Assembly (NCBI GenBank): GCA_003022005.1
Contig: PXRQ01000069.1
Span: forward strand, 1 to 26,210
Direction: 5' to 3'
From: Halobacteriales archaeon QS_5_70_15
GTDB lineage: Archaea; Halobacteriota; Halobacteria; Halobacteriales; Haloarculaceae
Length of the DNA: 26,210 bases
Part shown: positions 5,024-25,098 of the stretch, in pieces
How positions within the stretch are numbered: the stretch's first letter is position 1
Layout of the letters: each line of letters begins with the position of its first letter
Notes under the pieces: generated by a model
What the model was told of the DNA's origin: nothing
What the model saw: the letters and a program-made list of their open reading frames with translations, nothing else
Databases searched by the model: none
Program-made: the position numbers and the translations under genes

Positions 5024-6991
5024 ATGACCTCTCCGGACACGACCGAGCGGGTGGCCGTCGTCGGTGTCGGGACGACCGGTCGCGGGATCGCCGGCGCGTT
5101 CGCGGCCGCCGGCTACGCCGTGACGCTGACCGACGCCGACGGGGACGCGCTCGCCGAGGCATCCGGGCGGCTGGCGGAGCGCCTCCCGAGCGGCGACGCC
5201 GAGGGTTCGGGGGGCGTCCCCGGGCGAATCGAGACGGCGACCGATCCCCGTACCGCGTTCGCGGCCGCCGACCTGGTCGTCGAGGCGGCCCTCGGGAACC
5301 CGGACCGCACGCGGGACGGCCTCGCCACGGCGGACGAGCTCGCACCCGAGGACGCCCTCCTCGCGGTCGAGGCCGGAGCGGTCCCGGTCGCGGACCTCGC
5401 CGCGGCGACCGACCGCCCGGGACGGGTCGTCGGGATGCGCTTCTCGCGCCCCGTCGATTCGACGAACGCAGTGGAGGTGGTCCGGGGCGAGCACACCGCC
5501 GACGGGGCCGTCGAGACCGCGCGGGCCGTCGTCGAGATCCTCGACAGGACGCCCGTCCTCGTCGAGCGGGACGTCCCGGGACTCGTCCTCGACCGGATCG
5601 GCCTGCGGTTCGGACTCGAGGCCGTCCGGCAGGTCGACGCGGGGGGGACGGACGTCCGAACGGTCGACGCCGCCGTCCGGCGCCTCGGGCTGCCGATGGG
5701 CCCGTTCGAGGCGCTCGACCGCGCCGGGCTCGACGTCGCGGCGGGGGTCGCCCGGTCGATGCGCGACCGCGGCGTGGACCTGCACCTCCCGGACCTGCTC
5801 GCGTCGAAGGTCGACGCCGGCGAGCACGGCGTGGCGACCGGGCGGGGGTTCTACGACTACCCCGCTCCCGGCGAGTACGCACGGCCCGACGTCCCCCGTG
5901 AGCGGCGGTACGAGTTCGACCCGAAGGCGCTGCTCGCACCCGCGGCGAACGAGGCCGCGTGGCTGCTCGCGGAGGGCGTCTCGACGGTCGACGGGATCGA
6001 CACGGCGACCCGTGCCGGGATGGGCTGGCCGCGGGGGCTTCTCCAGTTTGCCGACGAGTACGGTCTCGACCGACTCGTGAACACGCTCGAACGGCTCCAC
6101 GAACGGTCCGGGTGGGCGGCGTACGAACCCCATCCGCGGCTCCGCGGGATGGTCGAGGACGGCGACGTCGGGCTCGTGGGCGGGACGGGGTTCCACGACC
6201 ACGAGTACGAGCGCGAGCGGTTCGAGACCGTCCGGTACGAGCGCCGCGAGCGGGTGGCGTGGATCACGCTCGACCGCCCGGACAGGCTGAACGCGCTGGA
6301 CTCTGCGAGCTGGGCAGGTCTGGAGGCGGCGCTCGAACGCGCCGCCGGCGACGACGCCGTCCGCGCGACGGTCCTGCAGGGCGAGGGAAGAGCGTTTTGC
6401 GCGGGCGACGACATCGGGGAGATACGGGGCTGGGGGGACGAGACGGCGGCCGACGAGGCGCTCCATGAGACGCTCGGGGCGACCGTGGAGACGATGCGCG
6501 AGCATCCCAAACCCCTGGTCGCGGCCGTCGACGGCCCCGCCAACGGCGGCGGGTGCGAGCTGGTCCTCCTCGGCGACATCGCCGTCGCCAGCCCGGAGAG
6601 CGACTTCGCGCTCCCGGAGGGGCGCATCGGCGCGCTCCCGCCCATCGCGCTCACCTACGGCCGGACGAACCTCGGCAAGAAGGCCCTGATGGAACTCGCG
6701 CTCACGGGCGAACAGTTCCCCGCGAGCGAGGCCGAGTCGATGGGGATCGTCAACCACGTCGTCGACGGCGAGCAGGTGGTCGACGTGGCCCGCGAACTCG
6801 CCCGGTCGACGGCCTCGTCGGGGCCGGAGTCCGTCGCGGCGATCAAGGGGCTCTGGGCGTCGATGGAGGACGACCTGCTCGACCGATGGTTCGACGAGGC
6901 GCTGGGGACGCTCGCCGAACGGGTCAGTTCGGCGGAAGCCGAGGAAGGGCTGTCGGCGTTCCTCGAGAAGCGGTCGGCCGAGTGGGAGTAG
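5024..6991 (+). CDS. 3-hydroxyacyl-CoA dehydrogenase/enoyl-CoA hydratase fusion with a degenerate dehydrogenase active site
   Basis: This 655-residue protein has the archaeal fused architecture: an NAD-binding Rossmann domain (about 8-175, GVGTTGRGIA), dehydrogenase helical domains (about 176-385) and a crotonase domain (about 400-650). The hydratase half looks intact, with the oxyanion motif near GRAFCAGDDI and the paired catalytic Glu512 (GGGCE) and Glu532 (LPEGRIG), spaced 20 apart as in crotonase. The dehydrogenase half does not. The segment that is GLHFFNP in active enzymes reads GMRFSRP, so the catalytic His is Arg139. The SNTSS segment reads VEAGAV (115-120), and the conserved Asn of the NR motif is Asp190. 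The partner Glu151 is kept. It is probably a hydratase with a structural or altered dehydrogenase module. A weak TATA (CCTAAC, 4987-4992) precedes ATG 5024. The hairpin array begins at its stop codon. Confidence 0.92.
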   Translation: MTSPDTTERVAVVGVGTTGRGIAGAFAAAGYAVTLTDADGDALAEASGRLAERLPSGDAEGSGGVPGRIETATDPRTAFAAADLVVEAALGNPDRTRDGLATADELAPEDALLAVEAGAVPVADLAAATDRPGRVVGMRFSRPVDSTNAVEVVRGEHTADGAVETARAVVEILDRTPVLVERDVPGLVLDRIGLRFGLEAVRQVDAGGTDVRTVDAAVRRLGLPMGPFEALDRAGLDVAAGVARSMRDRGVDLHLPDLLASKVDAGEHGVATGRGFYDYPAPGEYARPDVPRERRYEFDPKALLAPAANEAAWLLAEGVSTVDGIDTATRAGMGWPRGLLQFADEYGLDRLVNTLERLHERSGWAAYEPHPRLRGMVEDGDVGLVGGTGFHDHEYERERFETVRYERRERVAWITLDRPDRLNALDSASWAGLEAALERAAGDDAVRATVLQGEGRAFCAGDDIGEIRGWGDETAADEALHETLGATVETMREHPKPLVAAVDGPANGGGCELVLLGDIAVASPESDFALPEGRIGALPPIALTYGRTNLGKKALMELALTGEQFPASEAESMGIVNHVVDGEQVVDVARELARSTASSGPESVAAIKGLWASMEDDLLDRWFDEALGTLAERVSSAEAEEGLSAFLEKRSAEWE

Positions 6992-7210
6992 CGAGGTCTG
7001 AGCGGAGCGAAGACCTCGGAGAAGCGAACGGCGAACGCAGTGAGCCGTGAACAGCGAGACGCGACCGGAGCGAGCGTCTCGGAACGGCGAGCGGTGACCG
7101 ACGGGAACCGCGAGCAGCGAGGGCGCAGCGAACGGAGCGAGCGAGCCCTCGGAAACGCGAGCGGGGAGCGGAGCGACCCGCGAGCAGCGAGCAGCGAGGG
7201 CGCAGCGAAC
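6992..7210. repeat. Tandem array of hairpins, about 63-bp unit, with compensated stem changes
   Basis: Directly after the TAG at 6989-6991 come three copies, plus a partial fourth, of a unit of about 63 bp containing one long and one short hairpin. Long hairpins: 6992-7018 (stem CGAGGTCT), 7055-7081 (CGAGACGC), 7118-7151 (CGAGGGC, loop region enlarged). Short hairpins: 7028-7048 (ACGGC), 7091-7111 (GCGGT), 7161-7181 (GCGGG). Five loops are exactly 11 nt: GAGCGGAGCGA, GAACGCAGTGA, GACCGGAGCGA, GACCGACGGGA, GAGCGGAGCGA. The sixth contains GAACGGAGCGA inside a 20-nt loop. Spacers are 9 nt (GAnnnGCGA) within a unit and 6 nt (GAnCAG) between units. A 23-nt exact direct repeat links 7111-7133 and 7188-7210. 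Stems differ between copies but always pair. Confidence 0.9.
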
Positions 7211-7232
7211 TCCCGACGACAGTGTGTCCGGA

Positions 7233-8181
7233 TCAGCCGAACTCGAACGCCTCGCCGATGCCCTCGTGTATCCGGGCCGCGTTCGGGAGCTGGTAGTCCT
7301 CGAGTTCGTACAGCGGGTAGACGACGTCGTAGCCGGTGACCCGCTTCACCAGCGCCTCCTGGTACAGCGGCGCCTCCTCCTGGACGAGGCTGGTTATCTC
7401 GCCGGCCAGTCCCCCGGTCCGGGGCCCCCCTGGACGACCGTCGCGCGACCGGTCTTGTTGAACGACTCGACGATACCCCCGCCGTCGAGCGGGCACGGCG
7501 ACCGGAGGTCGACCGGCTCGACGTCCACCTCCCCCGCGAGCTCCTCGGCGGCCGCGAGCGTTGGGCGGGTCGTCGCTCCCCGGGTGAACACCGAGGCGTC
7601 CGACGCCTCGCGGCGGACGGCCGCCTCGCCCATCGGCGCCTCGTAGGTCCCCGTCGGATCCGGGTCCGCGAACGCGCGGTAATCCGCTCGGGCTCGAGGA
7701 ACACGACGGGGAGGTCCATGGGGTCAACGAAATTCATCCCGTCCGGACGTCGCCCTTGCTCGCGGCACCGTCGCCGAACACCGCGAGCGTCACGTCGTCC
7801 GCCCCTGGTACTTCCGACCCCGGGCGTGGCCGACCGCCTGCGGGACGGTCGTCCCGACGGCGACGGTGTGCGGGAGCCGGCGGAGGTGCGCCGTCGGGCC
7901 GACGTGCGCGGCCTCCTCGCCGCGGCACTCCATCCGGAAGGGGAGCTCGCTGCCGCGCTGGAGAGTCATCCTCCGTTCCTCGATGGCCCGCGAGCGGACC
8001 ACCGTCCCGTAGATCGACCGGAGCGTGTCGTCGTCGAGGTCCATCGCCACCACCGCCTCCCCGTCGTAGCTCCCGTCCGCCGCGATGACCTGCTCGATCG
8101 CCTCGTAGTCCTCGGGTAGCGGGCCACCGTCTCGACCCCCGCCCGCGGACCGGTCGAGGGATCCGCGTCCGTGCGTGACAT
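7233..8181 (-). pseudogene. Decayed, chimeric 2-oxoacid dehydrogenase E1 alpha/E1 beta remnant
   Basis: The start (8181) still has a TATA-like element (8208-8215) and an N-terminus MSRTDADPSTGPRAG. The E1 alpha frame then slips near 8140, continues with LPEDYEAIEQVIAADG and CRGEEAAHVGP, lacks about 45 residues of the usual sequence near 7880, slips again near 7800 and reaches FGDGAASKGD at about 7760. There it joins directly to the second half of an E1 beta (MDLPVVFLEPER). The E1 beta part has further slips near 7690 and 7425 and ends with the normal C-terminus AARIHEGIGEAFEFG, TGA at 7233. The thiamine-motif tail of E1 alpha and the N-terminal half of E1 beta are missing. It resembles the usual haloarchaeal pyruvate-dehydrogenase-type E1 more than the intact pair at 11176-13307, so it is a separate paralogue rather than a copy of it. 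Confidence 0.85.
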
Positions 8182-8253
8182 TCGCTACCGAGCGCCCCGT
8201 CGGACGTGGTAAATCGCGTCGACGCACCGTCCGGAACCGGTAGCCCGGAACGC

Positions 8254-9702
8254 CTACGGGAGGAACTCGACACCGGTGAACTCGATCCGGGCCCCGCCAT
8301 CGTCCCCCTCCGTGATGGTGAACTGCCAGACGTGGGCCTCGGCGATCCACCCGACGATCAGTAGCCCGAGGCCGCCGGATCCGGTCCCGGTGCCCCCCCT
8401 GCCCGGTCCGGACGTCCGTTTGGGATCGACCAGCCGCTCCCGCCGGTCTACCGGGATCCCCGGGCCGTCGTCCTCGACGTAGAGCCCGTCCTCCCCGAAC
8501 CGGCCGACCCGGACGGTCACGTCCTCGCCCCCGTACTCGATCGCGTTCCGGAACAGGTTCTCGAAGAGGTGTGACAGCCGGTCGGGATCGCCGCGGATCC
8601 GCATCTCGTCGACCACCGCCAGTGTCGCGTCCGCCGCCTCGACCATCCGCCAGCAGGAGGTCGCGAAGTCCGTCACCCGGATCGGCTCCGCGTCCGCCTC
8701 CGTCACCGTCTCGTCGAGGTTCGTGAGGGTCTCGGTGTCCTCGATGATCGACACAATACGGTCGATCGTCTCCTCGAGGGCCTCCAGGTGGTCGCTCTCG
8801 CACTCCTCCCGGACGAGTTCGAGCCGCCCCTGGGCGGCCGCGAGCGGGCTCCGGAGCTGGTGGGAGGTGACCCGCCTGATCTCGTTGAGCCGGGCGTTGC
8901 GGCGCTCGAGTTCCCGGGCCCGGGCTCTGCGCTCCGAGACGTCCCGGCAGATCAGCAGGACCGACGGCTCCCCGCGCCAGTCGATCGCGGCCGCGGTCAG
9001 CTCGACCGGCGTGACGAGACCGTCCAGGCCGACGATCGGCTGCTCGAGCCGATCGATCTGTCGTTCCCCGGCCCGGATCGCGGCCAACGTCTCGGCGGTG
9101 ATCTCGTGCGTCTCCGGGGAGATCAGGGTCGCCGGTGACACCCCCTCGAGGGCGTCGCAGTCGTCGGCTCCCAAGAGGTCCAGCGCGGGCCCGTTGGCGT
9201 ACACGATCGAATCTCCCTGGAGGACGGCCATCGCATCGGGGATCGCCTCGAGAATGACCGTCGTCCGGGTCTCGGGATCGTTCAGCGGGGCTCGGGTTCG
9301 ATGGAAGTCGATCGCCCGAGTGATCAGCGAGGCGAGGCGAGCCCACCGCCCCTCGATCCGCTCCTTGATGAGGTAGTCGGTCACGTGGGCGTGGATGGCC
9401 CGACTCGCGACCCGTTCGTTGCCCTCGCTGGTGACGAGGATGAACGGCTGGTCGGGTCGCTGGGCCCGGACGGTTTCGAGGAAGGCGATCCCGTCGATGT
9501 CCGACAGGTCGTGGTCGCTGACGATGCAGACGACGTCGTTCCGCTCGCGGAGCGTCCGGAGGGCTTCCTCGACCGAGGCGGCGGAGATCACCTCGTAGGG
9601 GAGCTGTTTCGGGAGCTCCCGGGTGAAGGCCGCCTCGAACGCCGGATCAGCCGTGACCTGGAGGAGCGCCGGTGTCTCGGCCGCGACACGATTGTGCTCC
9701 AC
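8254..9702 (-). CDS. Hybrid sensor: receiver, PAS and histidine kinase
   Basis: This 482-residue soluble protein has no membrane segment. Residues 11-125 form a receiver domain with phospho-acceptor Asp63, conserved Thr91 and Lys113. Residues about 145-260 form a PAS domain. The dimerisation box TSHQLRSPL contains His281, and the C-terminal ATPase has an N box (LFRNAIEYGG), G1 (VEDDGPGIP) and G2 (GSGGLGLLIV). Receiver-PAS-HisKA-HATPase is a common haloarchaeal layout; the signal is unknown. The start is GTG at 9702. A good TATA box (CATAAATAG on the plus strand, 9726-9734) lies 24-32 nt upstream, and the nearby ATG at 9712 is out of frame. It sits between the broken E2 gene and the E1 remnant, so it may have been inserted into an old dehydrogenase operon. 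Confidence 0.9.
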   Translation of the reverse strand: MEHNRVAAETPALLQVTADPAFEAAFTRELPKQLPYEVISAASVEEALRTLRERNDVVCIVSDHDLSDIDGIAFLETVRAQRPDQPFILVTSEGNERVASRAIHAHVTDYLIKERIEGRWARLASLITRAIDFHRTRAPLNDPETRTTVILEAIPDAMAVLQGDSIVYANGPALDLLGADDCDALEGVSPATLISPETHEITAETLAAIRAGERQIDRLEQPIVGLDGLVTPVELTAAAIDWRGEPSVLLICRDVSERRARARELERRNARLNEIRRVTSHQLRSPLAAAQGRLELVREECESDHLEALEETIDRIVSIIEDTETLTNLDETVTEADAEPIRVTDFATSCWRMVEAADATLAVVDEMRIRGDPDRLSHLFENLFRNAIEYGGEDVTVRVGRFGEDGLYVEDDGPGIPVDRRERLVDPKRTSGPGRGGTGTGSGGLGLLIVGWIAEAHVWQFTITEGDDGGARIEFTGVEFLP

Positions 9703-25041: not shown

Positions 25042-25098
25042 GAGCGACGACGCACGGCCGTATCAGAGCATCCGAGCGAGCGAAGCGAGCGAGGTTCA

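What the first reader, a model, noticed from the sequence alone, without database searches (positions are those of the whole stretch)
6992..7210. Tandem hairpin array with covarying stems and a near-constant 11-nt loop
Three units of about 63 bp (63, 63, then about 70 because one hairpin is enlarged) each hold a long hairpin (7-8 bp stem beginning CGAG) and a short one (5-bp stem). Stem sequences differ between copies yet stay perfectly paired: CGAGGTCT, CGAGACGC and CGAGGGC for the long stems; ACGGC, GCGGT and GCGGG for the short ones. Loops keep a GAnCGnAGnGA-like 11-mer, with fixed 9-nt and 6-nt spacers. Compensated change between copies points to selection on structure, or to a copying mechanism that regenerates palindromes. 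The array starts at the stop codon of the hydroxyacyl-CoA fusion gene. I recall GCGA-rich intergenic tracts in other haloarchaea but know no described function.
Basis: partly seen in the sequence, partly recalled or inferred. Interest (0 to 1): 0.8.

Follow-up and report, generated by a model that had tools for sequence, protein, structure and literature searches.

The report
Tandem array of GA-capped hairpins
Right after a fatty-acid gene of a salt-loving archaeon lies a short array of hairpins whose stems vary freely while a special cap stays nearly the same, and the same cap recurs in other archaeal plasmids and in repeat families of unrelated bacteria, which makes it a lead on why microbes keep such repeats.

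Summary
Window 6992-7210 holds three units (63, 63, 70 bp) plus a truncated fourth; each has a long and a short hairpin whose stems differ but pair. The '11-nt loop' is itself folded: GA-NN-GNA-NN-GA, a 2-bp mini-stem with a GNA triloop between GA/GA steps (inferred tandem G-A pairs). Its inner pair, not used to choose rows, is standard in 30 of 33 hairpins. As RNA the + strand beats all shuffles (z -3.86), the - strand does not (-0.70).

The same double hairpin sits in a conserved intergenic element of haloarchaeal plasmids: of 13 elements read, 11 carry capped hairpins at one spot, 2 do not. The cap also marks repeat families of unrelated bacteria: one genome has 36 copies in 400 kb, free outer pairs always complementary. 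Loop-reversed decoys find few, mostly single matches.

Best reading: a haloarchaeal REP/BIME-like array of capped extragenic palindromes, kept because one strand folds stably; not required by this gene (no array behind a Halomarina orthologue). New variant of a known kind. Whether it acts as DNA or mRNA is open.

The parts
5024..6991 (+). upstream gene: 3-hydroxyacyl-CoA dehydrogenase / enoyl-CoA hydratase fusion; its stop codon TAG 6989-6991 abuts the array
   Evidence: (Pfam 3HCDH, 3HCDH_N, ECH_1)
6992..7018 (+). unit 1 long hairpin, 8-bp stem, cap GAGCGGAGCGA
7028..7048 (+). unit 1 short hairpin, 5-bp stem, cap GAACGCAGTGA
7055..7081 (+). unit 2 long hairpin, 8-bp stem, cap GACCGGAGCGA (inner C.C mismatch; drawn as an open loop in the fold)
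7091..7111 (+). unit 2 short hairpin, 5-bp stem, cap GACCGACGGGA
   Evidence: not among the rows of R1
7118..7151 (+). unit 3 long hairpin, 7-bp stem, enlarged 20-nt loop containing a further cap-like sequence
7161..7181 (+). unit 3 short hairpin, 5-bp stem, cap GAGCGGAGCGA
7188..7210 (+). truncated fourth unit; 7189-7210 repeats 7112-7133
25076..25090 (+). isolated minimal capped hairpin (GC-GA-GC-GAA-GC-GA-GC), not part of the array
   Evidence: E 0.0063

Best explanation
The array is a haloarchaeal, REP/BIME-like set of extragenic palindromes. Its repeated unit is a double hairpin. The hairpins are closed by the cap GA-[2-bp mini-stem]-GNA-[2-bp mini-stem]-GA or a near variant; the short hairpin repeats the joint at its foot (GC-GA-stem ... 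stem-GA-GC in units 2 and 3). Shown: the copies, the pairing, covariation including the inner pair, the excess over decoys, occurrence at several genomic sites, an occupied/empty contrast in a conserved plasmid element, and no array at an orthologous gene end. Inferred: selection acts on the GA-rich strand when single-stranded (replication, repair or transfer DNA, or the transcript), because a GNA mini-hairpin on tandem G-A pairs is very stable and nuclease resistant; tandem copies arose by duplication, and stems then drift with compensation. At this locus the array would be transcribed as the 3' end of the beta-oxidation mRNA, between convergent frames, where it could protect the 3' end; this last step is a guess.
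For: Structure: MFE equals centroid, z -3.86; opposite strand -0.70. Inner pair 30 of 33 standard with three Watson-Crick types though not selected, against 78 of 206 Watson-Crick in loop matches with at most 2 stem pairs. Stems of 5 bp or more: 10 of 111 true loops against 0 of 578 over five permuted loops. Plasmids: R1 against decoy R2. Double hairpin inside a conserved element: (9 of 19 pairs changed on both sides, 0 of 500 shuffles). Bacteria: and 97/98 (R1 against decoy), 102, 118, 119, 124. No array at the orthologous gene end of Halomarina sp. PSR21, 64% protein identity. Stability of GNA mini-hairpin DNA: PMC4686876, passages seen.
Against: No chromosome of the host or of any haloarchaeon could be searched, so genome-wide copy number and context are unknown. 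DNA folding energies do not beat shuffles (z -1.06), only RNA energies do, which favours RNA over ssDNA. Orientation is mixed (G065: ++ 6, -- 5, +- 4, -+ 3), which weighs against a pure mRNA role. In the GC-rich genomes G218 and G166 many copies fall inside called ORFs (G218 contig 10 of 11; G218 11 of 24 and G166 13 of 18); those simple ORF calls are unreliable at 67-72% GC, but 'extragenic' is not shown there. Rows of A1 were picked for perfect outer stems, so outer pairing there is by construction, and four window hairpins are among them, so R1 scoring those four is no test. Genome searches scored at most 68-150 candidates per bacterial genome. Stem changes between units 1 and 2 look too clustered for stepwise compensation.
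Confidence: 0.6

Rival explanations
1. The array is an mRNA 3'-end element of the upstream gene (stabiliser or termination aid) selected for that gene.
For: It starts at the stop codon on the sense strand and only the + strand folds well as RNA; a second tandem array in Halomicrobium mukohataei starts just after a stop codon, also sense; some IMG/VR hits seem to overlap a stop and the next start, sense (read by eye, no gene calls).
Against: No T run follows; the Halomarina PSR21 orthologue has a 29-nt gap and no array; elsewhere hairpins lie antisense to both neighbours, upstream of genes, or in an intron-like stretch on the strand opposite to a tRNA (with 74, 79, 118, 131).
Confidence: 0.2
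2. Palindromes are regenerated by template switching (one arm copied onto the other), with no selection for folding.
For: Between units 1 and 2 the long stem changes at four adjacent pairs while the cap differs at one of 11 positions, faster than stepwise compensation would suggest.
Against: The cap recurs in archaea and bacteria and its inner pairs covary; single stem mismatches lean to G.T over A.C on the GA strand (haloarchaeal 5:3, bacterial 8:0, viral 0:0; small numbers, families not independent); plasmid orthologues mostly show single-pair changes.
Confidence: 0.14
3. Sites for a specific enzyme (Y1/RAYT-type transposase or another hairpin-binding protein) that spread the units as mobile DNA.
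For: Multi-copy families in some genomes, insertion-like occupied/empty contrast in the plasmid element, nesting of one unit in another (L005), a unit at an anticodon-loop intron position.
Against: No Y1_Tnp match in hairpin-rich genomes G065, G166, G218 and in 13 of 16 haloarchaeal plasmids; matches in G204, G123, G150, G180 and 3 plasmids; no constant tag shared by bacterial and archaeal families; no target duplication established.
Confidence: 0.15
4. Compositional accident: GCGA-rich DNA makes such patterns by chance.
For: Any-loop hairpins are not in excess; the loop motif alone is only mildly in excess.
Against: Permuted loops and decoy models fail; homologous double hairpins with compensated change.
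Confidence: 0.03

Closest known systems
REP / BIME extragenic palindromes, GTAG and CGTC super-families (Di Nocera 2013, PMC3733652; abstract, passages, section 6 and the first of two parts of section 17 seen)
   Same: Short hairpins, multi-copy, mostly intergenic, variable stems, some clustered; the bacterial G065 family even has a TGTC tag with stems beginning AT, as described for CGTC REPs.
   Different: The window units carry neither tag; here an 11-nt cap sits on 5-8 bp stems, while CGTC REPs are described with 8-9 bp stems and 4-5 nt loops; tandem direct array, not head-head dimers; no consistent Y1 link (the paper too finds no dedicated transposase for CGTC REPs). BIME is a recalled name.
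GNA mini-hairpin DNA such as d(GCGAAGC) (PMC4686876, passages seen; the original papers cited there not seen)
   Same: Centre of the cap: two base pairs closing a GNA triloop.
   Different: Biophysics of synthetic oligos; here set on GA/GA joints in natural repeats, sometimes with A-T inner pairs.
PATEs, MITEs and SMRs of Haloquadratum (PMC3119063, passages seen)
   Same: Transposase-free repeats of a haloarchaeon, some inserted in palindromes of others.
   Different: Those are defined sequence families with IS605-like palindromes or inverted termini; here stems are free and the cap is fixed. Sequences were not compared.
Integron attC sites (boxes recalled, no call)
   Same: Three bacterial hits (L191, L192, L202) look like attC sites by the recalled RYYYAAC/GTTRRRY boxes, with the cap at the hairpin tip (by eye).
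   Different: No such boxes were noticed in the window array.
Double-hairpin elements of fungal mitochondria (recalled; search listing only)
   Same: Double hairpins with variable stems (recalled).
   Different: Different genomes; not compared here.

Membership tests
GTAG/CGTC-tagged REP | unpaired GTAG or CGTC/TGTC tag at one foot of the stem | tested here: not met
   window hairpins are flanked by AG/GA and GCGA/GA(A/G)C; a TGTC tag is seen in the bacterial G065 family
GTAG/CGTC-tagged REP | multi-copy, predominantly intergenic palindromes | tested here: inconclusive
   array intergenic; plasmid relatives mostly in unannotated DNA of an incomplete gene table; host genome not held
GTAG-tagged REP | association with a RAYT / Y1 transposase | tested here: inconclusive
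   Y1_Tnp absent from G065 and from 15 of 22 other genomes or records; window itself not scanned for it
PATE / IS605 remnant | near-terminal palindromes of conserved sequence with IS605 ends | not tested
   no IS605 ends were compared
any Rfam family | covariance-model match | tested here: not met
   0 matches for the window at gathering score and 0 at E up to 5 for 6900-7300
intrinsic terminator | hairpin followed by a T run | tested here: not met
   no T run after 7210 by eye; scan_promoters_terminators was not run
GNA mini-hairpin | two pairs closing a GNA triloop | tested here: inconclusive
   met by three of the five 11-nt caps of the array (units 1 long, 1 short, 3 short); unit 2 long has an inner mismatch, unit 2 short has triloop GAC; 21 of 36 G065 copies have GNA

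The most novel reading that the evidence does not exclude
GA-NN-GNA-NN-GA is a general structural cap of single-stranded nucleic acid, reached repeatedly in both domains: haloarchaeal double hairpins, several bacterial repeat families, tips of attC-like sites and phage gene junctions. The repeats are held together by this fold, not by sequence, and form a structure-defined superfamily of palindromes that persists because the folded strand resists nucleases or is seen by a general hairpin-processing machinery.
Probability: 0.35. Interest if true: 0.82.

Novelty: new variant of a known kind. Interest (0 to 1): 0.62.

Why it matters
Why prokaryotes keep small palindromic repeats is an old open question. 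A cap shared by apparently unrelated repeat families, with exchangeable stems, says that what is kept is a fold. That makes the question testable: which strand folds, as DNA or RNA, and what protects, reads or copies it. It also gives a search model that finds such repeats where searches by stem sequence would not.

Tried and rejected
A genome-contig scan with the fusion protein gave only a Herbaspirillum and a Streptomyces locus, so no haloarchaeal chromosome was reached; the two served as entry points to bacterial genomes. IMG/VR: the long-hairpin pattern gave 17 stretches, none with more than 2 of 4 free pairs complementary, a plain negative. The short-hairpin pattern gave 88 stretches; one search scored L088-L167 only (80 loci, 82 matches, 17 with all five pairs, several from near-identical phage contigs); L168-L175 entered only the later scans of all loci. 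The plasmid core pattern found nothing in IMG/VR. Phage records: no match to the array. In the phylum of G001 the model evidence is modest by genome count (31 of 120 against 19 of 120 for the decoy) and clear only by copy number (at most 9 against 2). Two plasmid matches (W14 at 106159 and 328107) are probably coding chance: the second lies inside a P-type ATPase gene and the first lies before the same pair of downstream genes, apparently an unlisted copy of it. Survey of perfect hairpins in the haloarchaeal loci: with 11-nt loops and stems of at least 7, GA...GA ends are commonest (27 of 159, next 6; six of the 27 from the L186 array); with loops of 7-15 nt and stems of at least 6 they rank only seventh (94 of 4331); these loci were fetched for similarity, so this is no unbiased sample. 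Behind the Halomarina PSR21 orthologue there is no array, but R1 has one 39-nt match (21.8 bits, E 8.3e-5, with a long loop) 115 nt past the stop, inside the convergent frame. Searching GACCGCAGGGA with two mismatches in the window is at chance. Rejected: Rfam families (no match to these hairpins), simple composition (decoys). Literature: the searches listed no paper that I recognised as describing this cap in repeats; only listings were seen except for three papers, many hits were not listed, and the library is open-access only.

Full report
What is there. The sequence at 6992-7210 holds three tandem units and a truncated fourth (direct repeats with spacing 63 and 70; tandem period 63). Each unit is long hairpin, 9-nt spacer, short hairpin, 6-nt spacer. 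The stop codon of a 3-hydroxyacyl-CoA dehydrogenase / enoyl-CoA hydratase fusion (Pfam) is directly before the array. Against shuffles the excess is specific: 11-nt loops closed by at least 5 bp are 5 against a mean of 0.49 (1 of 2000 shuffles), while hairpins with any loop of 3-15 nt are not in excess (9 against 6.3, 121 of 500).

The loop is a structure. Folded as RNA, the + strand 6989-7188 gives the array as both MFE and centroid, -91.3 kcal/mol, z -3.86, 0 of 200 shuffles; the - strand has z -0.70. With 6985-7215 the z is -3.30, but the long hairpins of units 2 and 3 give way to other pairings. With DNA parameters neither strand beats shuffles (z -1.06 and -0.84). The fold shows the 2-bp inner stem in the caps of unit 1 long and all three short hairpins, an open loop in unit 2 long, and GA facing GA also at the feet of the short hairpins of units 2 and 3. 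From 33 distinct hairpins chosen only for the loop letters and at least 5 outer pairs (four of them from the window), the inner pair, which was not used in the choice, is standard in 30 of 33 with GC, CG and AU types plus one GU; among loop matches with at most 2 stem pairs 78 of 206 are Watson-Crick. Variants with one inner pair, no cap, or T-A inner pairs occur (L005, L006 and L184, L181). That the GA/GA steps form sheared G-A pairs is inferred.

Decoys. In about 1.2 Mb (four haloarchaeal plasmid records, two whole and two in part, plus the window) 10 of 111 GANCGNAGNGA loops have stems of at least 5 bp, against 0 of 578 for five permuted loops (its 'rc' row is the same set seen from the other strand). 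A model of the 33 hairpins (R1) and a decoy with the 11 loop letters reversed (R2) were searched alike. Sixteen haloarchaeal plasmid records, all fetched because they resembled the array, the window or the element below: R1 matches all 16 at E up to 1, with 37 matches at E up to 0.01; R2 matches 9 of 16, best E 0.17. Eight of the 16 gave no row to R1; seven of those eight have an R1 match at E up to 0.01 (two matches in one of them probably coding). In 120 genomes of the phylum of G001 (entered through a Herbaspirillum locus): R1 31 genomes, 54 matches, at most 9 per genome; R2 19 genomes, 20 matches, at most 2. In 100 genomes of the phylum of G002 (Streptomyces locus): R1 58 genomes, up to 49 matches per genome; R2 13 genomes, at most 2. 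Only the top candidates per genome were scored. In the window R1 has five array hairpins at E 2.1e-7 to 8.4e-5 (four are its own rows; the fifth, 7091-7111, is not) and 25076-25090 at 0.0063; R2 nothing better than 0.16.

Relatives in haloarchaeal plasmids. BLAST of the array matches 13 plasmid records, 11 of them haloarchaeal; 12 of 13 matches have no listed gene under them, in a gene table that is incomplete. One hit opened a larger element: 159 plasmid records with 241 places, 60 listed, all of those haloarchaeal, and a 64-nt core in 148 records, 214 places, up to 100% identical between genera. In 70 of the 148 one place covers at least 80% of the core; the other 78 are shorter matches, consistent with interruption, but I read only 13 elements. 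Of these 13 (L004, L005, L176-L185, L187), 8 carry a double hairpin like the window unit at one spot (in L184 the short one lacks the cap, L178 and L181 are imperfect), 1 a nested version (L005, a second double hairpin inside the first), 2 one capped hairpin plus another hairpin (L176, L183), 2 none (L180, L185). The alignment of the 8 with window units 1 and 2 has 9 of 19 pairs changed on both sides, 0 of 500 shuffles; further pair types are not in excess (76 of 500). Beside the element, 9 of 13 have a gene annotated as DNA-binding or OB-fold protein, 3 a TFIIB-family gene, 1 neither; of four such DNA-binding proteins tested only one passes the Pfam OB-fold cut-off. A second tandem array, six near-identical copies of about 70 bp with the variant loop GACCAGCGAGA, starts just after a stop codon in Halomicrobium mukohataei. 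In a Haloarcula plasmid a double hairpin fills the 55-nt intron that ARAGORN, only when introns are allowed, draws in a tRNA gene, antisense to the tRNA.

Relatives in bacteria. In 400 kb of G065 the pattern TGTCAT-NNN-GA-N7-GA-NNN-ATCT, which leaves stem and inner letters free, has 36 matches (29 distinct). The three free outer pairs are Watson-Crick in 36 of 36, the first inner pair in 36 of 36, the second in 27 of 36 plus one T-G; the triloop is GNA in 21 of 36. On the 29 distinct rows paired cells, doubly changed cells and covariation score exceed all 500 shuffles, the counts of pairs and of pair types do not. With the cap motif itself (GANYGNARNGA), stems are 5 of 5 paired in 21, 4 of 5 in 1 and at most 3 in 27; 38 reversed-loop controls never reach 4. 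By simple ORF of those 22 are intergenic: ++ 6, -- 5, +- 4, -+ 3. In a 385-kb contig of G218, 11 of 25 cap matches have at least 4 pairs against 0 of 35 controls, but 10 of the 11 fall inside called ORFs, mostly antisense, at about 72% GC where such calls are unreliable. Other genomes hold families with other stems and flanks. Y1 transposases are absent from G065, G166 and G218, present in G204, G123, G150 and G180.

Mechanism. GNA mini-hairpins with at least two G-C pairs are reported as extraordinarily stable, nuclease-resistant DNA (PMC4686876, passages). The cap is that mini-hairpin set on a GA/GA joint. I therefore think the GA-rich strand is kept foldable. Single stem mismatches lean to G.T over A.C on that strand (haloarchaeal 5:3, bacterial 8:0, viral 0:0), as expected if that strand, not the duplex, matters; numbers are small and families are not independent. 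RNA or ssDNA cannot be told apart: energies favour RNA, mixed orientation favours DNA. The Halomarina sp. PSR21 orthologue of the fusion gene (64% identity) has a 29-nt gap to a different, convergent frame and no array, so the array is not essential to this gene; one R1 match with a long loop lies 115 nt on, inside that frame.

Status. A tandem, tagless, haloarchaeal variant of palindromic repeats. It fails the tag test of GTAG/CGTC REPs (PMC3733652) and has no Rfam match; in anatomy it resembles a REP cluster. Function at this locus remains inferred.

Noticed in passing
L185:2477-2540 and its relatives (L176-L187): A 64-nt non-coding core, up to 100% identical between haloarchaeal genera, in 148 plasmid records, inside a conserved intergenic element of several hundred bases next to a 'DNA-binding' or TFIIB-family gene in 12 of 13 read; no Rfam match in the loci scanned. 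Possibly a plasmid ncRNA, origin or transfer site.
   Followed up: partly
L186:2484-2950: Tandem array of six near-identical hairpin units of about 70 bp between two sulphur-transport genes of Halomicrobium mukohataei.
   Followed up: partly
L191, L192, L202 (unnamed bacterial genomes): Sites that look like integron attC sites with the GA cap at the tip, on the strand of the recalled RYYYAAC...GTTRRRY reading (by eye).
   Followed up: no
L096, L100, L109, L137 (IMG/VR contigs): Capped hairpins that by eye overlap a stop and the next start codon; nearly the same hairpin lies between different sequences in L096 and L109.
   Followed up: partly
L006:2958-3085: Double hairpin at an intron-like position of a tRNA gene beside 22 predicted tRNA genes on a Haloarcula plasmid, antisense to the tRNA.
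   Followed up: partly
window 7233-8300 (- strand): The convergent neighbour is a short open frame with a sub-threshold Transketolase_C match; the frames upstream are interrupted. The gene may be broken or the sequence faulty.
   Followed up: partly
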